Assembly (NCBI RefSeq): GCF_021917145.1 | Contig: NC_061071.1 | Location: 383,375-447,374 of the forward strand | Length of the DNA stretch: 64,000 nt | Reading direction: 5' to 3' | Origin: Hypomesus transpacificus | Lineage: Eukaryota > Chordata > Actinopteri > Osmeriformes > Osmeridae | Part shown: positions 1,734-64,000 of the stretch, piece by piece | How positions within the stretch are numbered: position 1 is the first letter of the stretch | Layout: every line of letters starts with the position of its first letter | The notes under the pieces: model-generated | Seen by the model: the letters and a program-made list of their open reading frames with translations, nothing else | Databases searched by the model: none | Told to the model about the DNA's origin: nothing | Position numbers and translations under genes: made by a program

Positions 1734-16687
<14,954 letters not shown>

Positions 16688-32645: not shown

Positions 32646-32969
32646 GGGATCAGCTGAAGGAGGCACAGGAACGCAGCAAACCTGGAACCAGGGGAGAGAG
32701 ACAAAACAAGATTTAGAACACACACACCCAGGATGACAGACAAAGAACACTAGGGAGAACAGGGAGAACACTAGGGGGGCAGAACAGGGAGAACACTGGG
32801 GGGGCAGAACAGGGAGAACACACTGAAGATACCATGGCCGTCTCGGTGCTGGGTTCCTCTGTTCTCATTGTGTTCCTGCGAGGAGGTGTGGCCTGTCCCT
32901 CGCCACACATGTCTGAGTTCCGCAGGCCCACGTGAGGTCGCGGCCCCGGCACGTGCCGACGGTTCTGGG

Positions 32970-33031
32970 CACGCCGCAAACGTGCACGCCGCAAATGTGC
33001 ACGCCGCAAACGTGCACGCCGCAAACGTGCA
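32970..33031 (+). repeat. 15-bp CpG-containing tandem repeat, 4 copies
   Basis: Four copies of gcacgccgcaaacgt (one with aaatgt). Confidence 0.93.
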
Positions 33032-33414
33032 CAAACCTCAGGGTCAGACAGACTTTCTGCGAGGAACAGAGAGAAAAAAAACCTCGAGAGGTTTATTTTC
33101 TTTTCCTTTTCCCTTTCTTGTTTTACCACTCTTATTCTAATATTAGGCTGAAGCATTCAGGAGGCCGTAATTGAATACAGAACCAAGCGTTGACACCGAC
33201 AGGAAGAGCAGAAAACAAGCTTTTCAAAACCTTAACTGTTGGACATAAACACTCGGGCCATCTAACCCTCCGTTACTTCTGAGCCTCACGTTGAAAACAT
33301 CTAACAATCCTACTGGTGGATGTAGCGGAACCTGAGGGGGTTGTGGCTGTCGATTCTCCAAAACAAAAAAAAAGATGAAACTCGTTGGAAAAACAACAGA
33401 CTCTTTGAGTATGA

Positions 33415-33540
33415 CACTGCTGGTCTGTGTCCGCCATGGGAGAGACTGCTGGTCTGTGTCCGCCATGGGAGAGACTGCAGGTCTGTGTCCGCCATGGGAG
33501 AGACTGCAGGTCTGTGTCCGCCATGGGAGAGACTGCAGGT
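33415..33540 (+). repeat. 29-bp minisatellite, 4 copies
   Basis: Four copies of a 29-bp unit (core ctgtgtccgccatgggagag). The first two begin ctgctgg and the last two ctgcagg. The NcoI-like ccatgg in each unit gives fake start codons. Confidence 0.95.
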
Positions 33541-34678
33541 GGGTCGGCTGTGGTTTACATTCATCGGATCCTCTATCGCTTACAGATGGGAGGTTTGAGG
33601 AGCAGCCGAAAGATTCACAACAAAGGCTGGGGTAGAAGGAGCCGGCCAGGTCCTCGCTCAGTGGGAGACCCAAAATGCTTTCCCCCTAGGCCTGTCGACG
33701 CCATCCACAACATCTCACTCTCTTACCCACGCAGACACACACGCACGAGTGCACTTGCACACACATGGACATAGAGACACACACACAGCAGCAAATGTTG
33801 CTCTGTAACTGGGGCCTGGCTTGCACACCAAACTATCGCAGGAGGGGTTCAGGGGGTAAATCTGCTGGGGCTGGAGGAATCTCGACAGCTCCTGTCTACA
33901 ATCTCTCAGGGTTGATGTCCCTGGATCCAGCTGAGCCGTTGCCTCGGCAACAGACTGTTGTGATTTGGCTAGTCGTTGTATTTCTATTCGCAGATTGTTT
34001 TCTTTGCGATTTGGCAATGGTTCTTCTTTTCTCTCCACGTAAATCCCGCCTGTTAGACATGGAAGGACTGAGATGAGAGGCCTGTCTGTTATCACAGAAA
34101 TATGAATCAGGGTGATACTCCTACTACTGACTACTTCCTTTGCCATTTTTAAAGGAGATGAGGCAGACTAGATATCAAACCCTGGTCTATGGGGCTTGAA
34201 CCAATTTGTCTGCCGTTAGACCGACACGGCTTCTTGAATCCCAAGTAAACCAGGGAGCTAAAAAACATCTCTGGGACAAAAAGGTAGATTGAAAGAGGTG
34301 AGACAAAATGTGCCCTGTTGTATAGCTCTGTTTTGTAGACTTGATACGACTCGATACAGCATCAATTTTGGCTCTCGCCCCTGCCGGTGTGGAGAATCAC
34401 AGTGCAAAGAGGGTTAAACGTACTGAATGCTGTGAAACAGTCGATCCTGCAAATATATGTAAATTCCCTGCACTTGAAACCAGCAATCTGTCTTTCTGAG
34501 AAACAGGATGATGCCAGTGACGTGGGCCTCCAGGAAATGACTGGAACCTAGACAGAGCGGGCAGAGGGCTTGAGGAGAGGAAGCTAACGACTTATAGTAA
34601 AAAGTGAACATGTGTCTATTAAAAAGGGCCAAATGCGTCACGACAGACTGTATTTTTTTTTTCATCTCCTCTTTTTGT

Positions 34679-36321: not shown

Positions 36322-36327
36322 TTTATT
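36322..36327 (-). terminator. Poly(A) signal overlapping the FIIND-CARD stop codon
   Basis: On the minus strand the last codons read TTC CAA TAA AA, so the AATAAA hexamer contains the TAA stop. If used, the 3' untranslated region would be only some 15-30 nt. Confidence 0.55.
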
Positions 36328-37990
36328 GGAAGCCAAGTGTTATGTATAAGGCAGGGTCATATTTAGCCAAAATAGATTTAATCACATAACATGAGGGAGA
36401 TCCTTTCCTCAGGACCATGTCGATGGTGACCCGTGTTCTGGTCTTCCTCACTGTCTCCACCTTCACTGCCTCCATCTCAGCATCGTTGATCACCCTCTCC
36501 TGCAGAAGTCCATCCAGCAGATCATTCAGGACAGGCATCGTCACTCGCTCCACAAACGCCAGTCTTGCAGAGCGCAGCTGCTCCTCTGCAGAGCCCTTCT
36601 GAGCATGCTCAGTCTGCCTGCCTCCCATCGATGAGGAACCTGGTTGTGTGGAGGAAACCCAGATGTGTTCAGCTGTTCAGAAATGAAGTGAGTGATTCTG
36701 GCATCAGGTTGGTGGACGTTACTGCCAGTCATTAACCTCAGTAAAGTACAGCAGAAACTGAAGCCTGAATGTGGACCCTGAGGATGTCCTGTACCTGTTA
36801 GTGGAACACTTGCTGCCCACACCTCCTCTCCTTCTCCCCCTCTCTCCAGAAGCCTCAGCCCCACCTGCTCTGTGTCGGCGCTCAGAAACACCTGGAAGGT
36901 GGGGTGGTAGTTTGGACCGTAGTTCCAGTAGACCTGAACACGCTGGAACACAGATGAGATCATTGTTAACAGCTAGATCTGAACCATTCAGAACCATCTG
37001 TCCGGTTTGGACGAGACTAAACCAGTGAATAATGAGATAATAATATATAAGGGGAACCAAATTAGTAAGAAATTACCACAGATAATATAAAGGTTTTGAA
37101 CCTAACGTAACATCATTAGACAAAAGCATTATTATATCATGAGTGAGTTTACCTTAGGTTGGATCATATCTCCCTCCACCATATCACAGCAGAGACTGTA
37201 GACTTCTCCACGAGAGAGTGTGCAGTCTGAACACACAGCTATATAGGAGCTCAATCTCTGCATCCTCTCCACCTGAAATAAGACGATGTATTCAACATGT
37301 CAGCATTTCACACTCTTGGCAAAGCTCACCAACTTCTACCCTTTATTTAACTCCTTTCAATTCACCCTTTTCAGGGCTTGTGGTGCAACCATAGTGATTT
37401 ATATACTGATGTGTTTTGGGTGTGTTAGAAGGTCTACCTCTTGGAGTGGAACGTTGTGTGGTAGAACAACCAGGTTGAGAACAGAGCGCTGGGGGCCAAG
37501 TGGTTGGAGGAAGGGCAGCACCTGCCCCCTGGTGGTGAGGAAGGGTATGTACCATCTCACCAGACCCCACAGGGACAGGTCTGTGATGTTCACCACCACA
37601 TGTGTGTCAGTCACCCTCAGGGGAGGCAAAAGCTCCACATTATCACCACTGACATGAGCCACAGACAAGGAGTCAAGACCCTCTCCTGTAAGACAGACAG
37701 GTTTCAGTCAGCAGTATTTCAGAGCTGAGTAGGGTAAGCGTGGTATTAGTGAGTTGTGAGAGGTGTGGAACTCACCAGAGAGAATCTCACAGTGTGGGAG
37801 GTGCAGCTGACAGACAGAGCCCTGAGGACAGCTGATGTTGAACAGGGGTCCTGCAGGGGTCTGGCCTATGGAGAGCAGCAGACCTTCATCCCATTGGACA
37901 GTTCTGTAGAGCACCTCCCCCTCTCCCTCCATCTGAAAGGCCAGACCTGTCAACCTGCATTGGAACACACCCGCATGGGGGCACTGGAGC
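36323..37990 (-). CDS. FIIND-CARD portion, splice-intact (NLRP1/CARD8-like module)
   Basis: Exons on the minus strand: 37990-37776 (ZU5-like: [28 protein letters not shown]), 37685-37438 (UPA start: [35 protein letters not shown]), 37272-37153 ([20 protein letters not shown]), 36942-36795 ([20 protein letters not shown]) and 36639-36323 (CARD). All internal splice sites are canonical and phases match. The CARD exon has [20 protein letters not shown], then INDAEMEAV and a terminal [12 protein letters not shown], as in FIIND-linked CARDs. In NLRP1 and CARD8 this module self-cleaves, and the released UPA-CARD nucleates caspase-1 activation. Here the serine aligned with the cleavage site is present (TDLS, codon 37573-37575) but Phe is replaced by Leu. 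No start codon can be assigned to this part alone. Confidence 0.78.
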
Positions 37991-38580
37991 CTGTGGCAGT
38001 GGTGATGTCTGACACTCTTCTGAACTCCAGTTCATTTCTTTACTGTCATCCATCTCAGGGTAAAACACATCTCCACTGTTTGCTGCCACCATCTCATCTA
38101 TCTTGTTCAGCAGCTCAGGGACCTGAGTGCTATCAACTTTGTTCTTATAGTTGAGGACATGATACCTGTTCCCACATTTCTCAACAAGCCACTGGAGGGC
38201 CTTCCCTTCTCTCTCAATGTGCTGCTCAATGGTTGTGTCTCCCAGACGGTCCCCATGAGTGAACAGCACTATAGACTGTGACTCCAGACTCTCTCACTGA
38301 GAAGCTGCAGGTGTCCCACAACTGATCTCTCTTTCTTTGTCAATGAGGCATCCAGCTGTATGACCAGGAGGAGAGTGTGGGGTCCCTGAGGACACAGAGA
38401 CACACTGCGTACTATCTCCTGTTTAACCAGTTCAGTAGTGTACTGTAGGGTGATTCCTCCACCATCCTGGAGTGTCAACCACAGTGACCTGCCTCCCTGC
38501 TACTTCTCCCTGTCTCTTCACACACTGAGCAGTGGTATTCCGGTCAAACTCCTCTCTTCCCAGAATGGTGTTTCCTGATG
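36323..38580 (-). pseudogene. AIG1 (GIMAP-type GTPase)-FIIND-CARD gene, GTPase part broken
   Basis: On the minus strand an AIG1 GTPase fragment, a FIIND (ZU5-UPA) and a CARD follow one another. AIG1: GNTILGREEFDRNTTAQC and the G3 motif VVDTPG (38465-38479), then ITLQYTTELVKQEIVRSVSL with LLLVIQLDASLTKKER in a second frame, then [20 protein letters not shown] and [11 protein letters not shown] in a third. So there are indels near 38448-38464 and 38268-38275. A further frame change separates the AIG1 linker from FIIND near 37990-38040. The P-loop (GxxGxGKS), expected just before GNTILG, is absent: sequence beyond 38580 is unrelated. Frames of the neighbouring genes are almost all clean, so simple sequencing error is a poor explanation for all of this. 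It may be a truncated pseudogene, or an intact FIIND-CARD gene with a decayed 5' part. Confidence 0.8.
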
Positions 38581-39202
38581 AACATTATATCCTGAAAATA
38601 CTGCTAACATCCCTTGCCAGCAGAGAACCCCCCCTCCTCACATGACTTATAGATGACACTAAGATTACATAAACAAGCCGACCTAGGCTGACCATTATCA
38701 TACTAGAGGTGCAATGAATGTGTTTCTGTGTTGAGTGAATTATATGGTCAAGCCTAGGGTCAGAGAACTCTGTAGGTTTCCACGCACACACTGTCCCTGG
38801 GATCGATCATATTAACAGCTGGTATGCAGAGGAGGGGACTTCTCTCCATTAAATGGTTATACCTGATAATTTGTGAACCAGACAAACTTTGTATTGTGAT
38901 CAGACTTTGTCTCCTTGCTGGCAAGCATTGAACTATTGTACTTTCTTTGAATCCGACGACTCTGTGCATTACTTGAGAAATTATCTTAACAACAGGAGAC
39001 TTGCAAAGGATCTTCCATGAACATCATGAACATGATAGCATCAGTGGACCAGAAGTAGTAGTGTGCAGTATTGGAGCATGTCAAGCCTACTTCCTTTTAT
39101 AAGTGTACTTCTTATTACGCGGGTGGGTGGATCTGAGGCTGCCTCCGCCAGTCTGTCAAATCAACTCTCCGCCAAGCGACCCGTCCTCCTCTGACTCTGA
39201 AA

Positions 39203-41222: not shown

Positions 41223-44200
41223 TTATAATTGGCGGTCTAATACTGTGTCTGCTGAAACAGACAGTTTAGACTGGCTAGAGCTAAATGTATCCAGTTCTTT
41301 GAAGGAATCGATGGTATTTCTGTTTTTGTGTTTAAACCGTAGAGTGTAACTTTCGATATGGCGGCCGATAGGAAGATCCAACATCTTTTGCCTGAAGATG
41401 GACGTTCTTGCTACGAACAGTATGAAAATCTGAAGTCCCTGTGAACGACAAAAAAATAGAGATGGCGAATGGTTCTGAATCTTTTTAGGTTTACATTATT
41501 TATAGGTCTTCATTATATGAGCTGTTACTGTTCTATGGTTTGTTCAGACAGGATTATTGGGCAGTTGCCACAACACGGTTAGTGAGTTTTCCATGTCACT
41601 TATCTCACAATTGTTTATGGGGGCCGAAACAGTCACTACCAAGCGTGTGCATACAGTACATAGGCATCAGGGGCATTTTGGATGTTTTCATCACACATTT
41701 GACAGAGCTTGTCCCCAGGGATGTCCCCTATGTACTGCCTGTCTAACTCAATGAGAACACAGGTAACAAACACAGGTAACTACCGTTACCAAATACGTTA
41801 CCAAGGCTTTACTGACATCTAGTGGAGTTTTCACAGCACATACGACTCTAAGTATGAACTAATAGTAGGTTAATCTTTTATACCTGTGTGGTGGTACACA
41901 GGCAGAAGACAATGCTCAGGATGAAGTGCATGTTCTTGTTTGGTATGATGAGCATCAGGTAGCCTATTATCCAGGACAGACCCAGCACCACTGATAATGA
42001 GAAACTACTCAGAAGTTTTTTCTTGTTGGAGGACTGTTTAGTGCTGTGGAGAAAATAATAAAAGCTTACAGCAGATAGTAGAGCACTCAAAACATACAAG
42101 TACAATAAAAAACGTTTTTACAAGCCCTTCGACTATGAGGATTTGTTTACGTATGATAGCAGTTAGCTACATCATCGGTACCTGGTTAATTCCGGGTCGG
42201 TCCTGCAGGTTTTGTAGCTAAAATAGCATAGGATAACTGTGTTAAAGATCAGAATTAGAGCCACTGGGATGAGGAACCCCCAGAACATTGGCTTTGCAAA
42301 GTCAAACTGCCCCTCTTGGTTTACAGCAGCAAGCCAGCAACTGGAGGGGGAAAAGGAAGTAGTTTGTTGTTGATGTAAAGTACTGTGAACATCTACCTCT
42401 ATGTGTTTTGTACTGTAGTATAATATGTATTAGGATATGCTATGGAAGCAAATCAGTGACATCATGTTGTGAATTTAAAAAGCATTGAATACTTAATATA
42501 TACCACCTAATTTGCTGGTTTTGAATTCACCTCTTCAGATTGAAATATACATTTATTTAAATGTTCAAAAATTCCAATCCAGAATTCAAGGTTCGGAAAT
42601 TCAGGTTCCTCAAATTCAAACAGTAAAATTCAGATCCCAAAAATTAAATTAAATAACATTCAGGCTTCAGGAATTCAAACACAACAAAATTCAGGCTGCT
42701 CAAATTCAAATGGTGGAATTCAGATCCCCAAAATTCGAACCTGTTTTTTCTAAACAGATTTGCTTGCATACTATTCTTTCTTTGTCCTGGTAGTGTAATA
42801 ATACAGTAAAAGGAACAGTAAAAGCTATGACAGATTACTTATTAAATGTTGGCAGTTTAGTGGATTAAGTAATAATGAAACAACCACAAAAAAAAGAAGA
42901 GGTTTCAATTTACAATTCTTCCCGTCGGTAGTTTAATGGATTGTCCACTCTGTAGGTGACTCCCAACGTGATGGAAACGATAAGAGCAGGAACTCCTGGG
43001 AGAGAGAAGACAGTCTTGGTACACTCTAGCACTTTCAAGGATCATGTTGTTTAATGGTAATTTATTTAATAACATGCTCTTCTGGTTCTACCCATTGGCA
43101 CTTATTTGCTTTTCACAATGTATGCTTCATGTTTTGGCTTCCCACAATGTGTTTGGGGCTATCTTGTTGTTCATGATCATTGACCTATACCTTTTTGTAA
43201 AGCTCTTTCTTGTAAGTAGTTTTGGACAAAAGCGTCAGCTAAATTAATAAATGTAAATGTTGTGACTGTGTTGTCACAGGCCTGCTGCAGCACCCTGAAG
43301 TCCACCTGTCCCCCTGCCTGCGTCTCTGCAGAGGGTGTAACCCATAATGATTTTAGGGTGTTTGTCTAAGCTTTTTGTAAAGACTGCACAGTGAAGAGGT
43401 CATACATAGTGGTGTGGGGGGAGCACTAATCTTTGCTGTTTGTTGGACATTTTTTCAAGTAGTAGTATGAAGTTGAATACTTAAGTTAACAACAGTTACC
43501 CCCCCCCCCCTCCCCCTCTCAAAGAACAACAACATAGGTACGGTGACAAACAGTACTTTCTACTTTGTTACTTCATGCCGCTACCTACGTACCCCATCCA
43601 GTCACCACGGTGATAGTGGGGAGGTAGGATGGGGGTCTCCTCAGGGGGTTCCAGAGCAGGAGGAACATGTGACAGGCATAGAGAGAGTTCCAGACAAAGG
43701 TGGCCATCAGGAAGTACTGCAGTAAGACTGCCACGGCAGTGCAGGGTCCGTGGTCTGGGTCGATGTGCAGGTCAGAGGAAGGCATGACGTTGGCGTCCAA
43801 GTCTTCAGGTTCATGGGACTGTGGGTCGGTGTTGTTGATCCCCAGCAGGAAGAGGAGGGTGAAGATGAGGAGGCTGACACAAAGGCTCACCATCAGGATT
43901 GCTGGGCTGCTGTTACCGGATTTCCTGGGAAACGCACCAATTTAAGAAGTCAACGTAACAATTTGCTCTCTACGGAAGTTGCTTTCTTGAGGGTTGCCAA
44001 ATCACGGTACAGCAAAGATCCCGTTAATTTAATCTCACCTGGTCATGACGTAAAAAACTATTGTGATAACCAAGCCCACAACAGACATGGAACACCCCAG
44101 ATAGGTAATCCAGTCCAGGGCTTCAGAGTAGACATATTCAACCCTGTAGGACTAGAGGAGGAGAGAAAAATAAACAACTATGACATTCCAAAGTGCTTTA

Positions 44201-47200
44201 AATGTTATAGGGTTGTTTGATTTGTATGTGAGTAGTTCACAGCTGAGGGCAGTAAAGACAGAGGTGAGAGAGGACTTGCCATTAGCGCAGCAAAGTTGGT
44301 GGTATGATTGCAAACACAACGCAGGGCCTCAGAGGAAACGTTGACTTTGGAGCACCCTTCTGTGCTCCATTCACTTTTGTTGTAGTTCCAGAACACGCAT
44401 GCAAAGTCGTAGAGGGTTGTGGTGGGGACATTCTGAGAACAGAAACAAGTCACTTTGTCATCACCGTAGCCGGAGAACCAAACACAAATAGACATTTAGA
44501 TTTGTGGGTGAAATGGATGAATGCTGTTGTACAGTTGGTATACTAGGACTTCCTTGTTCCACTGTTAAAAGGAACAAAGAAACACTGTATTTACACAGCA
44601 GTTTACATTTTACATTTACATGTATTCATTTATCAGATGCTTTTATCCAAAGCGACCTACAAGAAAGAGCCTTACAAAAAGTGCAGAGGTCAATGAATGA
44701 TCATAAACACAAGATAGCCCCAAAAACATTGCGGGTAGCCAAAACATGAAGCATGCATTGTGAAAAGCAAATAAGCGCTAATGGGTAGAACAAGAAGATT
44801 AGTAGTTTAACAAATTACAGTTAAACAGCATGATCCTCGAAAGTGCTACAGCGTACCTGGAGGAAAGCAAGCAACAATAATATAATTCAGTTCTGTTTCT
44901 TCCAGCCTCCACGAATTATGAATAAGTGTCATGACTCTGCTGTATCAAGCAAAGCTAATCTAAAACACGGGTCTGCAGGGAATCTTACAACTGGCTTGAA
45001 GACCATTTCCACGTGGTCGACCCCCATCCTTCCAGCTCCTTTCACATTTCCCGAGATGACCCTTCTACGACTGCCCAAGAGGGCTCTGAAATCCCTTGAC
45101 TTGAAGAACCTGTCGTTCTGGTAGAGCACAAAGCCAACAGAGATGCTAGAACTTTGATGCCGCATTCCTGAGGGGACGAGGCCCAGTTTGTAGAGGAAAA
45201 GAAAAGGAGGGAGAAATTAGAGTTGTATTTTATCTACTCGATTGTGTATTGTGGTAGATTTAGTTTACTATGTCTCATAGGAAGTGTGTGATAAGCACAA
45301 GGAAACTGTAAGGGGGTTGATGGTGAATCTACTGTATGACGTTAGGTCCACTGTCAGCTCACCTGGTGATAATCTAATGAATACCTGGACATCAGTGGCC
45401 TCTCCATTGTCAGACCCAAGTTCAGACGCATTGGTATTCAGTCTAATTCTATCAGCAGAAAAATTACTAGATAATCCTGGAGAAGGGGGAAATTATTGTG
45501 TTGATCATTTAATTGGAATCTAAAAAATGTTGACAGCAAATGTATCTGCAAATGTGGATGAACAACGCCTTTTTCCCATCAACCTGTTTGTGCAGAGAAC
45601 TGGACGCCGACTATGTTGTTACTGGTTAGTACGACAGACTGGACCGCGAGGTTGGGCTGGACCACTAGAGATGTGTTGTCTGACCCCAGTGAGATATTCT
45701 GTAAACTTTCAGTTAGTCTGTGGGAAAATCAGAGGTAGAGAGACAAAATTACCTCACAAGAAAAACGTTACCGTAATGTGGCCTTCTCTCTGGTCACTTA
45801 AGCATGTCTGGATGATTCAAAAGATGTCCGCTACATGAGTCATATGTAAATTATGCAATGCACATTACCTTTTACCAGACGTCTCTGCTTCACTGTCCGG
45901 TACAGAAGCATCCAGCAGCTGACTAACAGTGGTCAATGCTGCCACGGCAACTGCCTGCAATAATACCAGACCACCACAGTTAGCTTTGAAGAATAGAATA
46001 GTGGAAAGTTTCTTTTTTTCACGTATTATCTCTCTTTCTCTGGTATATACTGTTTGTATATAGTAGATAAAACCAATGTAAATATGCAGCATGAATACAT
46101 ATAGCCTCATTGTTAGAATTGATGTTGTGTTGAGGTTTTTAAACACTGCACCTCTGAGATATTGGAAGACCTTTCAAGGAGGGTGTTGGTGATGTCAATC
46201 GCCTTGGTAACATTATCAGCTGTTAGAGTCTCCGGATTTGACGTCAGAATCTGAGCACTACTCGCTAACTGCAGCAAATTAGCTGTGCTGGTTAGCTAAG
46301 GGGATCAAAACAAAATAATGTATGTAGTTATATACTGTACAGGCATTTAGATTGTTAGATTGTCCCATTAGGTTTAAAAAGAGAGTCACCGTTTATATTG
46401 GGAATTGTTCTATTTAAATTTGACTTACATTTCCCTGAATGTTGCTGAGAGTTATGTCACACTTTAAGACATTTGGGGCATCAAACTTTGGAGTCCCATA
46501 TTGACCGGTACACCTTGCTGAAGCTCTTGGCACATTCCCTGTTGGTGATAAAACAGAAAATAGTGAATTTGTTATCAAGAATGTCATGTAGAGATATTGA
46601 TGTTAGACAAAAATGGGGCAATGCAGTAGAGTGAATTGGGTAATCTGGCAATTTTTTGGCATTGATTTTCTCATCTGAGCTTTCTGATTTACTAGTGCCT
46701 TGACCCTTTCTGTGACACCACGACACCATCATGTTTTGTGATTTCATATACAATTTGCATCCATGCTAAACCTACAGTTAAAGTTCTGTGGACTAGACAT
46801 TTTCATAGCAGGGAAGAAAATGCTCTGAAGTTTAAGTGTCCCACATAACCCAAATTCACCCTTCGAGGAAAACCGACAAATCCTTTATCTTACCACTAGA
46901 TGTATTAGGTCCACACTTCTGCTTAGAATAACTGAACCAACCGATGATAGTTCTTGGGAAAGTAAACCCTTGAATGGTTTCTTCCATGCAGATATTTTCT
47001 GAGAGATTTAAATGTGGTACATCGGTTTATATCAAACACAGAGCAGAACATACCTGTGATAACAAGATAACTAAGAACATGTTTAGAACAGCAGAGCCAG
47101 GCGAAGGTGCCATCACAGCCGTGGCAGTTTAGACCCACCTATTGAGCAGTTTCTTCCAGTCCATTCAACTGGACAGACACAGAATCCATTCTGTAGCTCA

Positions 47201-49947: not shown

Positions 49948-50896
49948 TCAGATCTGCAGCACCAGGCCAGCGGCAGAGATGTTGTCCCCTCCGCCGGCAG
50001 TCTGGTACACCTCGGTGCACACCAGCACGGGAGCCACACAGATCTGGTAGTCGTCCTCGTCCCAGCAGCTGACGGGCCTGGTCTCCTTCAGCGGTATCCG
50101 GGGGCTGCCCTCCTCCCGACTCACCGAGAACGACTCGTCCATGATGAGGCGCGCCTTGCTGGGGTCGATGTCCGAGGACCCGCACACGTGACGGTTAGCG
50201 GTTAGCGAAGCCTTGGCGACGGCCGACATAGTGTTCTTCCACTGGGACCCGCGCGTCACTATCATGGCCTGGAAGGCCAGCGTGTGGACGTGGAGCCGGG
50301 ACAGCGGGCGCCCCGCCGCTCCGCCCTCGCTCGCCTGGCGGTGGCGCTGGTTGAGGATGCGGTAGAGGTCCCGCATCTGGTCGAGCACGGTGGCGACGCG
50401 CGGGTTGGGGTCCGACAACACGGTGACGTTGGAGCCCCGGAGCAGGCTCAGGAGGTTGGGCAGCTCCTGCTCGTTCATGCCCAGGGAGTCGGCCTGGGGG
50501 ACCACCAGCGCCAGCAGGTCCTCCATCAGGTCCTCGTCCACGAAGCTCGCCATCTCAAAATGGACGCCTGTCTGAGGGGAGGAGGAGGAGAGGAGGTGGG
50601 AGAGATGGGAGAGCAGAGCCTCCCGCTCACCTGGAGAAGAGAGAGAGGAAGAGAGAGAGAGAGAAATTGGGCGAGAAAATGTAGAGAAAGAAATTAAAAT
50701 ATTGGATCCAGTACGTGTTGCAGAACGTACTCTTCATCACCACCCAATAGTGTGTGTGAATATCACAGGCAAGACAAACACATTCTCTTTCCCTCACTTT
50801 CACTCTCACACCTCACTACACACACAGGCCAATGCGACTTAAACCATCAGTACAAACAGTCTCTATGGAAACCCATCATGGTCTGCCTGGCTGCCG

Positions 50897-50927
<31 letters not shown>

Positions 50928-53900
50928 GAATATGTGTCTATATTGACTGCTCTGATTGGCTGACTTCTCCACTCACCCTGTTGGAAAGGGAAGCTGTCCA
51001 TCATCTGGAGCCCGCCCACCACCAGTAGGTCTGGCTGGAAGGTCTGAAGCTTCAGCTCAAAGTCCTCCATGGACGCTAAGTAGGGGTTGTGGTCGTCACT
51101 GTGGACAATGTACCTGACGGGAAGCAGGACAGAGGGGAGTCAGATGGCTGAGCGGTGAGGGAGTCGGGCTAGTAATCAGAAGGTTGCCGGATCGATTTCC
51201 CACCGTGCCAAATGACATTGTGTCCTTGGGAAAGGCACTTCACCCTACTTGCCTCGGGGTAATGTCCCTGTACTTACTGTAAGTCGCTCTGGATATGAGC
51301 GTTTGATAAATGACTAAATGTAAGTGTATTGTATACACAGTCGCTATTTAACATTTCATCATCACAGCTGCAGACAGTTGAGAGTTTTCTGGGCGGGTTA
51401 TAGGGTTGAGCCTCCATTGCAGGTTGGACCTGACACACTCAAACACACCTGTTGGCCCTGCGTGATGTGTACTGCCCCCAGCTGGCTCCTGAGGGGTATT
51501 CCAGGATCAGGTGGATATCAGGTTCCTCCACTACATTACCTGCCACTAGGGAGAGGAAGGGAGGGACAGAGAGATGGGGGGGATATAGCAATAGACAGGA
51601 AGTGAAATTGTATAAGAGGGAGAAAAAAGGGGGAAGAAAGAGAGAGGGAGAGGAAGGACGTGTGTAGAGGAAATCTATGAGTTAAAACAAGGGAGTGATG
51701 AACAGTGATTGTATGTATGTATGTATGTGTGTGTGAGTGTGTGTGTGTGTGTGTGTGTGGATATGAGCGTGTGTATGTGTGTGTACCTGTGATGTGCTGG
51801 GACAGGACATCTGTGAAGTCTGGGCTGAAGCTTCCCCCTAGTAACACATCACAACCCTCTGTTGCCATGCGACTAGCCATCACGGGCGCGTTGCCGCCCA
51901 CTGACCAGCGGTTGCCCGGCAACTCACGAGACGCCTCGACCAGTTCATGGAAGAGAGTGTCGTTCCTCACAAACCTTCTGCGAGCGGAGAGGAGACAGGG
52001 AGAGAGGAGGAGAAATTGGGATGAGGGTCGGGAGGGAAGGAGGCAGGGATAAGAAGATAAGCCAAGTTATACCGTCTAGGTTGGCGGGGAACAACCTTCT
52101 AGAAACAATCGTTGTCTGTCTTAAGTTGCATTTGTTAAACGTGTGTGTGTATTTAGCGTGTGTATGAGCCTGTGACTCAGATCTTCGTAGGATTAACCCA
52201 GTTTGACATGAAGAACCTCCGGTGCATTAAAACTCAATTAGGGTTAATCCTTTCACCTGAACACAAGTGTGACACACTATCTGTATATTTAGGAAGTTTC
52301 ACTTATTTAAGCTCAGCATAGATGTAAATTATGTTCTGTGTACTTATATGTTATATTATGCCAGGTGCTTGCGTTGTCTTGTCTTAAGAATTTCAGTACC
52401 CAGTCTAACCTTGTGTTGTTCTGTGTACCTGACAAATAAAAGACTTGAACTTGAACACACAAACACAAAACAACCAAACTTATCACACACACACACACCC
52501 ATTCTATTCAGCTTTAAGCACAGCAGTCATGTTAGGAAAAGTAAAACACACTCCCCTCTTAAAAAAAGGTGTCTTGTGCCTCGCAACACGAGCCCAACAT
52601 GCAGCTCACAGGGCCCGGGCCAACGCTGCTCACAGCAAGTCAGTCAGCCTGGCTACTGGCCAGCATGAGCAGAGCTTATGAGGCCACATAGAGCCATCAC
52701 CAAGCCTTATGAGGCCACATAGAGCCATCACCAAGCCTTATGAGGCCACATAGAGCCATCACCAAGCCCTCATCCATCAGACTCTCTGAGAACTGGCGCA
52801 ACAGATCTATCTCACTTTCCTGCCAACGACTGCAATTTGGTAGCGTCCAACCCTCTTCCATGTTCTCAAATTCCACTCTGCTGTATGTGTGTGGTGTGAG
52901 TATATATTTCTGTGTGCGTGTATGTGTGTGTTGGAAGTGGGTGTGTGTCTAAGGGGAAGGTCAGCTCAGACTGTTGTCTTTAGCAGTTAGTTCCAGTCCG
53001 TGGGTAGCGAACCGAGTCTACTGATTTACCCAGGACAACTGGCCTCATCTCTGTGTTGGCCTAGCCACTGAGCAGACATTTATGTTGTGTGTGTGCACGA
53101 GTGTGTGTGTGTAATAGAAGGTGTGAGTTTGTGTAGTCCTATTTATGTAAATACTGCTCATATCTCACTGCTCTCTTAGAAGACTTCACTCTCATCCCCT
53201 AACGATCTTCGGAATGAAAGGTTAAGTGTGTGTGTGTGTGTTTCATTGCTCCTGCATGTTAGGGGTGGTAAGCCTTTGGCTGTGACTGGAGGAACATTTT
53301 AAGTTTGGTCTTCAGTCGCATTGCTTGCGGCTTGATATTTTTACCTTAACACACACACGTACAGAGGCACGTACACACGCCCACACTTACTCTGCAGCTG
53401 CCCCTGGGGCAAAGAAGTAGGCAAAGCTCTGAGCCAGTTGCTCATGGCTTTCTATGTAGTCGTGGTGCAGAGGTTCCTGCGTGGGAGGGAGGCCCATCTT
53501 GTTCAGAAGGGTCACTCCGTCTACGATCAAGTCCACACAGCCACCAAAACCTGGAGGGGAGGAGAATAGGGAGAGAGGGATACAGAGAAAAGGATGAGAG
53601 GAGTGAAATCTGACACCATACAAACACCAAACACTAACCTAGTAAGAGGTGTTTAAGTTAACTCATGCTAATGAGCCTCCATGATTGATTGTTTTTTCGA
53701 CATATCCCGTTTGGGAGTTGTCCGACTTTTGACACAGCTTATCAATACTTTCAAGCGATAAAAAAAAAAACTGTCAGTTCAGACTTTTGGCTAATGGCTT
53801 GTTGTCCATCATTCAGTATCTTGTCCTTGTCTCTAATCTACACATTATCCTTTTGGACCCAGGTGCAGAAGCTCAACAGTTACCATCAGCTACTTGCAAA

Positions 53901-57676: not shown

Positions 57677-64000
<6,324 letters not shown>

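What the first reader, a model, noticed from the sequence alone, without database searches (positions are those of the whole stretch)
36323..38580. GIMAP-type GTPase fused to FIIND and CARD: an inflammasome-sensor-like architecture
Reading the minus strand, an AIG1 GTPase region (DTPG, THGD motifs) is followed, in one gene-sized block, by ZU5/UPA (FIIND) exons and a CARD exon. Mammalian FIIND-CARD proteins are NLRP1 (NACHT-LRR in front) and CARD8 (disordered front). A GIMAP GTPase in front would be a different sensor head on the same autoproteolytic trigger. I cannot tell from memory how well this combination is described in fish.
Basis: partly seen in the sequence, partly recalled or inferred. 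Interest (0 to 1): 0.78.

Follow-up and report, generated by a model that had tools for sequence, protein, structure and literature searches.

The report
Decayed GIMAP–FIIND–CARD sensor gene copy
In a smelt genome, this stretch is a damaged duplicate of a fish gene that joins immune GTPase domains to the self-cutting trigger and cell-death adaptor known from the human alarm proteins NLRP1 and CARD8; what looks like an intact copy lies elsewhere in the same genome.

Summary
The domains are real. On the minus strand, AIG1 (E 2.5e-37), FIIND/ZU5 (3e-45), UPA (8e-22) and CARD (7e-14) follow one another in 2.26 kb. In this copy they are not a working fusion: the AIG1 exon is cut off at the P-loop (38583), changes frame twice, and meets FIIND out of frame because the linker exons are missing. 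FIIND-UPA-CARD stays open over five exons with AG/GT borders.

The architecture itself is genuine. The same genome (a smelt, almost certainly Hypomesus transpacificus) gives an open 13-exon homology model with four P-loop AIG1 domains, linker, FIIND, UPA and CARD. Of 246 listed proteins matching my FIIND-CARD profile, 37 from 20 other fishes carry AIG1 and FIIND.

The FIIND-CARD tree groups by fish lineage, not by head; the AIG1 tree does so in part. Repeated joining or concerted evolution would explain this. The cassette also follows other heads, for example a SAMD9-like exon here. GTPase-FIIND-CARD has a zebrafish precedent, Gbp4 (PMC4932187), so this is a new variant of a known kind.

The parts
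37994..38581 (-). AIG1 (GIMAP-type) GTPase remnant: P-loop missing, three reading frames
   Evidence: Pfam AIG1 2.5e-37 over profile 15-202 with X at the frame breaks; frames and coordinates; stops inside
38582..38584 (-). 5' break of the AIG1 exon: homology to AIG1 exons of other loci stops at 38583
   Evidence: blastn against L019, L020, L021 of the same genome: 10 of 11 AIG1 matches stop there
37991..37996 (-). Joint where the linker exons and introns found in other copies are missing; the acceptor AG of the FIIND exon is kept
   Evidence: DNA compared with L019, L020, L021, L023, L026
37776..37990 (-). FIIND (ZU5) exon 1
   Evidence: Pfam FIIND 3e-45 for joined exons; borders
37438..37685 (-). 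FIIND exon 2: end of ZU5 with the predicted self-cleavage site, start of UPA
37654..37656 (-). Histidine codon aligned with CARD8 His-270
   Evidence: alignment; position; His in 243 of 253 fish FIIND rows
37573..37578 (-). Predicted cleavage site Leu|Ser (CARD8 Phe-296|Ser-297)
   Evidence: alignment; position; Leu|Ser in 231 of 253 fish FIIND rows
37153..37272 (-). UPA exon
   Evidence: Pfam UPA-FIIND 8.1e-22; borders
36795..36942 (-). UPA exon ([11 protein letters not shown])
36323..36639 (-). CARD exon with stop codon TAA
   Evidence: Pfam CARD 6.9e-14; caspase-1 CARD is the best solved CARD-only match by sequence, 1.1e-8

Best explanation
The locus is a 5'-truncated, decaying duplicate of a teleost gene family with the order AIG1 (1-4 copies) - linker - FIIND (ZU5-UPA) - CARD. 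Shown: the domain order; the broken AIG1 and missing linker here; the open FIIND-UPA-CARD frame; an open homology model of the full architecture elsewhere in the same genome; predicted fused proteins in 20 other fishes. Inferred, untested: in intact members the GIMAP GTPases sense something on a membrane or invader and assemble on GTP; FIIND cuts itself at Leu|Ser but the halves stay together; loss or removal of the AIG1-ZU5 half frees UPA-CARD, which nucleates a CARD filament and calls ASC and an inflammatory caspase, as NLRP1 and CARD8 do. The window copy lacks the P-loop and so cannot bind GTP in the usual way; at most it yields a headless, CARD8-like FIIND-CARD protein if an upstream exon supplies a start; it may yield nothing.
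For: Pfam on the pieces. Breaks in AIG1 and the missing linker. Open 13-exon paralogue L019 (C12:6089000-6098990), one terminal stop, four P-loops; its neighbour L020 is open from AIG1 no. 4 to CARD; between the two that stretch has dN/dS 0.59 (bootstrap 0.39-0.89), CARD 0.12. Osmerus P0122 is 88-93% identical to L019 in the five regions compared, linker 89%. 37 of 246 FIIND-CARD-profile proteins have AIG1 and FIIND; 34 of the 37 show at least one GxxxxGK[ST]. The rows nearest to the window's AIG1 are fused or AIG1-CARD smelt domains (P0008, P0003, P0004, P0124; joins 89-93, not starred), and its FIIND-CARD sits in a starred group with Osmerus P0061 and P0124 and Hypomesus P0074; this suggests that both parts came from one fused gene. 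The model of headless relative P0061 matches NLRP1 and CARD8 FIIND and caspase-1 and CARD8 CARD structures. GTPase-CARD signalling has a tested precedent in zebrafish Gbp4, which needs GTPase activity and Asc (PMC4932187, abstract and passages).
Against: No transcript was seen for any copy; database fusions are predicted gene models, and L019 was modelled with GT-AG introns required and one linker donor ambiguous. Window FIIND-CARD shows no clear purifying selection against two paralogues (dN/dS 0.80 and 0.75, intervals 0.51-1.30 and 0.53-1.11), and the broken AIG1 part scores no worse (0.37-0.82 in six comparisons, three with the interval below 1). An open frame survived by chance in 12-33% of simulations with 30-60 substitutions. 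The cleavage residue is Leu, not Phe, and the CARD8 Glu-279 position is hydrophobic in all 253 fish rows, so self-cleavage is not assured. Assembly error could explain single frame breaks, though hardly the P-loop truncation or the linker loss.
Confidence: 0.78

Rival explanations
1. Two neighbouring genes: a GIMAP pseudogene that happens to lie upstream of a separate FIIND-CARD (CARD8/NLRP1-like) gene.
For: The AIG1 part is broken and in other frames than FIIND. The genome has 136 AIG1 matches, so chance neighbours are possible. Some smelt relatives are annotated as FIIND-CARD only (P0061, P0074).
Against: The same order with phase-compatible linker exons is open in L019, and fused proteins are predicted in 20 other fishes. 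AIG1 sequence lies upstream of FIIND on the same strand at 5 of 9 FIIND places of this genome, within the 10 kb fetched for each. The rows nearest to the window AIG1 are fused or AIG1-CARD smelt domains, without starred support. P0061 and P0074 themselves begin, by eye, in the AIG1 tail and in the linker.
Confidence: 0.08
2. The window copy is a working headless gene: the AIG1 head decayed after an upstream exon was recruited, leaving a CARD8-like FIIND-CARD protein under selection.
For: FIIND-UPA-CARD is open with splice-site borders over five exons; the acceptor of the first FIIND exon survived the loss of the linker; headless relatives are annotated in Osmerus and at C8 of this genome (P0061, P0074).
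Against: No in-frame ATG lies upstream of FIIND within its open stretch; dN/dS against two paralogues does not differ from 1; survival of the frame by chance is not rare.
Confidence: 0.25
3. Assembly error: the locus is an intact AIG1-FIIND-CARD gene, and the frame breaks are sequencing indels or a misassembly.
For: Two breaks are frame changes within AIG1; reads were not available.
Against: By my count 121 of the 136 AIG1 matches listed for the same assembly show no internal stop (frame changes are not counted there). The sharp end of homology at 38583 and the loss of the linker look like rearrangements, not indels.
Confidence: 0.06

Closest known systems
Zebrafish Gbp3/Gbp4 (GBP GTPase - FIIND - CARD)
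   Same: GTPase head before a CARD, in fish; the legend of the figure that draws Gbp3 and Gbp4 marks a FIIND (PMC4932187; the passages do not say which of them carries it). Gbp4 needs GTPase activity and Asc (abstract and passages). A Danio protein, P0331, has GBP, FIIND and CARD domains.
   Different: Head is a GBP, not an AIG1/GIMAP domain; P0331's FIIND-CARD groups with zebrafish NLRP1, not with the smelt genes.
CARD8
   Same: FIIND-CARD tail; fold match of headless relative P0061; aligned His-270 and Ser-297 kept.
   Different: CARD8 has a disordered head (as the finding says) and Phe|Ser; here an AIG1 head (broken in this copy) and Leu|Ser.
NLRP1 (mammalian and fish)
   Same: FIIND-CARD at the C-terminus; the best fold match of P0061 is rat NLRP1 with DPP9; zebrafish NLRP1 P0314 also has Asp-Leu|Ser.
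   Different: NACHT-LRR head instead of AIG1.
GIMAP8-like proteins
   Same: Tandem AIG1 domains; one search lists many fish GIMAP8-like relatives.
   Different: Most listed GIMAP8-like proteins lack FIIND-CARD. Two smelt species (P0003, P0017 Osmerus mordax; P0004, P0036 Hypomesus) and a catfish (P0097) have AIG1-CARD without FIIND.

Membership tests
GIMAP / AIG1 GTPases | AIG1 domain by profile | tested here: met
   Pfam AIG1 2.5e-37, 128.7 bits against a cut-off of 27, pieces joined with X
GIMAP / AIG1 GTPases | P-loop GxxxxGK[ST] | tested here: not met
   Missing in the window copy; present four times in the paralogue L019
GIMAP / AIG1 GTPases | Uninterrupted reading frame | tested here: not met
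   Three frames in the window; open in L019
FIIND-CARD proteins (NLRP1/CARD8) | ZU5-UPA (FIIND) followed by CARD | tested here: met
   Pfam FIIND, UPA-FIIND and CARD over cut-off; fold match of relative P0061
FIIND-CARD proteins (NLRP1/CARD8) | Cleavage motif Ser-Phe|Ser | tested here: not met
   Asp-Leu|Ser; Leu|Ser in 231 of 253 fish FIIND rows, Phe|Ser in 16, other in 6
FIIND-CARD proteins (NLRP1/CARD8) | Catalytic Ser and modulating His | tested here: met
   Both kept in the alignment to CARD8; that Ser, His and Glu matter is from PMC3210808 (abstract and passages); that the His is number 270 is recalled
FIIND-CARD proteins (NLRP1/CARD8) | Glu-279 of CARD8 | tested here: not met
   Leu here; Leu, Ile, Met or Val in 253 of 253 fish rows
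FIIND-CARD proteins (NLRP1/CARD8) | Self-cleavage and release of UPA-CARD | not testable with these tools
   needs expressed protein
GBP-FIIND-CARD (zebrafish) | GBP N-terminal GTPase domain | tested here: not met
   The head is AIG1; no GBP match up to E 1

The most novel reading that the evidence does not exclude
In teleosts FIIND-CARD is an exchangeable alarm cassette that has been joined again and again to unrelated immune heads: NACHT-LRR, GBP, GIMAP (in at least two lineages separately), SLIP-GC-type GTPase, SAMD9, MORC-like and SP140-like proteins. It works with a Leu|Ser self-cleavage site instead of the mammalian Phe|Ser. GIMAPs, whose direct role in pathogen sensing is unsettled (recalled), thereby become inflammasome sensors in fish.
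Probability: 0.42. Interest if true: 0.72.

Novelty: new variant of a known kind. Interest (0 to 1): 0.52.

Why it matters
If intact members work as the anatomy suggests, fish wire GIMAP GTPases straight to the NLRP1/CARD8-type trigger, which would give the GIMAP family a direct sensing output and let its ligand be sought by watching CARD release. Naturally swapped heads on one trigger separate what senses from what fires. The prevalent Leu|Ser site in the fish FIINDs sampled here raises a plain, testable question: does that site cut itself, and if not, how do fish NLRP1-type sensors fire?

Tried and rejected
Chance match: rejected by Pfam E-values. Leu|Ser as a sign of decay in this copy: rejected, because Leu|Ser is the rule in the fish FIINDs sampled (231 of 253 rows; isoforms and double domains not removed). 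One ancient fusion read straight from the FIIND-CARD tree: holding all AIG1-bearing rows as one clade is rejected (p-AU 2e-53), but concerted evolution or gene conversion within lineages could give the same tree, so I do not claim that independent fusions are proven. That tree is a quick one of 76 rows (29 AIG1-bearing) chosen by me from the listed hits; P0183, P0250, P0276 and P0290 were dropped as incomplete, and P0124 was cut by hand. The AIG1 tree supports lineage grouping only in part: knifefish and smelt GIMAP8 domains sit beside the fused ones, but the characin GIMAP8 proteins tested (P0103, P0106, P0111, P0114, P0116) do not sit with the fused characin domains. Purifying selection on the window copy: not shown. 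Some heads in the protein lists (STAT P0264, stonustoxin-like P0157, caspase P0153) rest on single gene models and may be chimeric annotations; I did not count them as shown. P0008 (Osmerus) looked like a clean single-AIG1 fusion, but its translation slips out of frame over the cleavage site, so I do not use it as an intact example. Literature: ten library searches. AIG1+FIIND and 'IMAP family member'+FIIND gave 0 papers; GIMAP+FIIND+fish gave one (PMC8195603), whose matched passages do not describe the fusion. The library holds open-licence papers only, so absence from print is not shown. A genome-wide CARD search of the own genome did not complete; CARD exons were looked for inside the fetched loci instead.

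Full report
What is there. The window is 64 kb of a fish genome without Ns; in the held assembly it is G000:C12:383375-447374. Contig C8 of that assembly is 14,090,550 bases, the length listed for the contig of P0074 from Hypomesus transpacificus, and the exons translated from C8 read like P0074; so the source is almost certainly that smelt (Osmeriformes). The contig length listed for two other Hypomesus proteins (17,206,656) was not among the few contigs whose lengths I saw. On the minus strand I find AIG1 (Pfam 2.5e-37), FIIND (3e-45), UPA-FIIND (8.1e-22) and CARD (6.9e-14) in order. FIIND-UPA-CARD forms five exons with AG/GT borders and no stop before the TAA at 36323-36325.

What is broken. 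The AIG1 part lies in three reading frames. Ten of eleven matches to AIG1 exons in L019, L020 and L021 end at 38583, at the P-loop. In five relatives the FIIND exon is preceded by an intron ending in ccccag or, at C6, cccaag; here the AIG1 exon runs directly into the same exon start, and the linker is gone. The two sides of that joint are out of frame. The copy at C8 (P0074) has an even shorter AIG1 remnant and a Pro in place of the cleavage Ser. The copy at C17:15.98 Mb has AIG1 sequence twice but a stop inside FIIND.

Paralogues in the same genome. FIIND matches (17) lie at nine places; AIG1 sequence lies upstream on the same strand at five of them. At L019 (C12:6089000-6098990) a 13-exon model is open from AIG1 no. 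1 to the CARD stop, 1382 residues plus a possible Met-Ala start, with four P-loops. I built it exon by exon against Osmerus P0122 with GT-AG introns required, so it is a homology model, not a transcript; one linker donor differed between two runs. L020, about 290 kb away and inverted, is open from AIG1 no. 4 to the CARD stop but has a frame break in AIG1 no. 3. Between these two, AIG1 no. 4 to CARD has dN/dS 0.59 (bootstrap 0.39-0.89); AIG1 no. 4 alone 0.53 (0.30-0.93), CARD 0.12 (0-0.51); ZU5 0.44 and UPA 0.49 have intervals reaching past 1, and the linker is 1.42 (0.61-4.88). L019 is 88-93% identical to Osmerus P0122 in AIG1 no. 4, linker, ZU5, UPA and CARD.

Other fishes. My FIIND-CARD profile matched 246 of the 348 listed proteins; 42 of the 246 also match AIG1, and 37 of those have FIIND (five are AIG1-CARD without FIIND). 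Of the 37, 34 show at least one GxxxxGK[ST] near an AIG1 start; a few end before a full CARD (P0024, P0091, P0315, P0321), and two have AIG1 after FIIND as well (P0315, P0321). By their listed names they come from 20 species: salmonids, pike, smelts, characins, catfishes and a knifefish. Each protein search listed only its best 120 hits (of 1287, 630 and 288), so this is no census. Pfam on eight full proteins confirms AIG1, FIIND, UPA and CARD in P0001, P0121, P0122, P0124 (UPA partial), P0045 and P0087, and FIIND-UPA-CARD alone in P0061 and P0074. Variants include AIG1-CARD-CARD-FIIND-CARD (P0243, P0244) and AIG1-FIIND-FIIND-CARD (P0127, P0241).

How it most likely works. Human CARD8 and NLRP1 cut themselves at Ser-Phe|Ser; the second Ser is required, and conserved His and Glu residues influence efficiency (PMC3210808, abstract and passages). 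Aligned to CARD8, the window keeps Ser-297 and the His at 270 but has Leu for Phe-296 and Leu for Glu-279 (residue numbers counted by me). Across 253 fish FIIND rows the site is Leu|Ser in 231, Phe|Ser in 16 and other in 6; the His is kept in 243 and the Glu position is hydrophobic in all 253. Of the 41 rows from AIG1-bearing proteins, 37 are Leu|Ser, 3 Phe|Ser and 1 Pro|Ser. Zebrafish NLRP1 (P0314) itself has Asp-Leu|Ser. So Leu is the rule in this sample, not damage here. Whether Leu|Ser cuts is open; adhesion GPCRs cut themselves at His-Leu|Ser/Thr (recalled), while PMC3210808 notes that UNC5b has Leu at the Phe-296 position. The AlphaFold model of headless relative P0061 (mean pLDDT 78.5; residues 1-84 unreliable) matches rat NLRP1-FIIND with DPP9, human CARD8 with DPP9, and caspase-1 and CARD8 CARD filaments. 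I infer GTP-driven assembly of AIG1 heads, self-cut FIIND, and release of UPA-CARD to nucleate ASC and caspase. Zebrafish Gbp4 needs GTPase activity and Asc for its function (PMC4932187, abstract and passages); the legend of the figure drawing Gbp3 and Gbp4 marks a FIIND.

One fusion or several. The FIIND-CARD tree (76 rows, quick method) groups by lineage rather than by head: AIG1-bearing rows sit in a smelt-pike-salmon group (support 94, not starred) and in a starred group of 49 otophysan rows that also holds NLR, GBP, MORC and SP140-like heads. Holding all AIG1 rows together is rejected (p-AU 2e-53). In the AIG1 tree (117 domain rows, many weak forks) fused domains of the knifefish and smelts sit beside ordinary GIMAP8 domains of the same fishes, but the characin GIMAP8 proteins tested fall elsewhere, on long branches. 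Separate fusions would explain this; so would one old fusion with gene conversion in both halves. In this genome a 939-residue exon related to SAMD9 (58% to P0125 of Oncorhynchus; solved SAMD9 structures at about 1e-74; no Pfam match) precedes FIIND and CARD at C32, a further sign that the cassette takes different heads.

Status of the window copy. Its FIIND-CARD differs from the C17 and C8 copies with dN/dS 0.80 (0.51-1.30) and 0.75 (0.53-1.11); the broken AIG1 part gives 0.37-0.82 in six comparisons, three with the interval below 1, which reflects the partners and the time before the break as much as this copy. A frame of this length stayed open by chance in 33%, 21%, 12% and 4% of simulations with 30, 45, 60 and 90 substitutions, indels not simulated. 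I therefore call it a decaying duplicate that may or may not still make a headless protein.

Novelty. A GTPase-FIIND-CARD order is known from zebrafish (PMC4932187). AIG1-FIIND-CARD proteins sit in databases as uncharacterized or GIMAP8 models. My searches of open-licence papers found no description. I rate it a new variant of a known kind. The specific window copy is a degraded member.

Noticed in passing
L024:5545-8361:- (G000:C32, upstream of FIIND C32:134925-135386): A 939-residue single exon related to SAMD9 precedes FIIND and CARD exons on the same strand; Oncorhynchus P0125 has the same order in one protein.
   Followed up: partly
and 32 protein lists: The fish FIIND-CARD cassette is annotated behind many heads: SLIP-GC-type GTPase (salmonids), MORC-like and SP140-like (catfish, cyprinids), GBP, NACHT-LRR-B30.2, PYD and, in single models, STAT, caspase and stonustoxin-like.
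   Followed up: partly
P0003, P0017 (Osmerus mordax), P0004, P0036 (Hypomesus), P0097 (Pangasianodon): AIG1-CARD proteins without FIIND; the GIMAP head is tied straight to a CARD.
   Followed up: no
P0074 (G000:C8:9.52 Mb): Headless FIIND-CARD copy whose cleavage Ser is Pro, so presumably uncleavable.
   Followed up: partly
window 43588-44495 (-), 49951-51139 (-), 60086-60562 (-), 4089-4358 (+): Pfam hits of the neighbours tested are not immune-type: an adhesion GPCR (GPS and 7tm_2), an ADP-dependent glucokinase, a SPRY-domain gene and an fn3 gene. The next AIG1 match on C12 is a fragment about 118 kb away (C12:539455).
   Followed up: partly
L022:99-6731 (G000:C21): About four tandem copies of a roughly 1.75-kb unit lie just upstream of another FIIND-CARD gene (ORF list).
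   Followed up: no
window 32771-33685: Minisatellite-like repeats (by eye) give spurious long reading frames on both strands.
   Followed up: no
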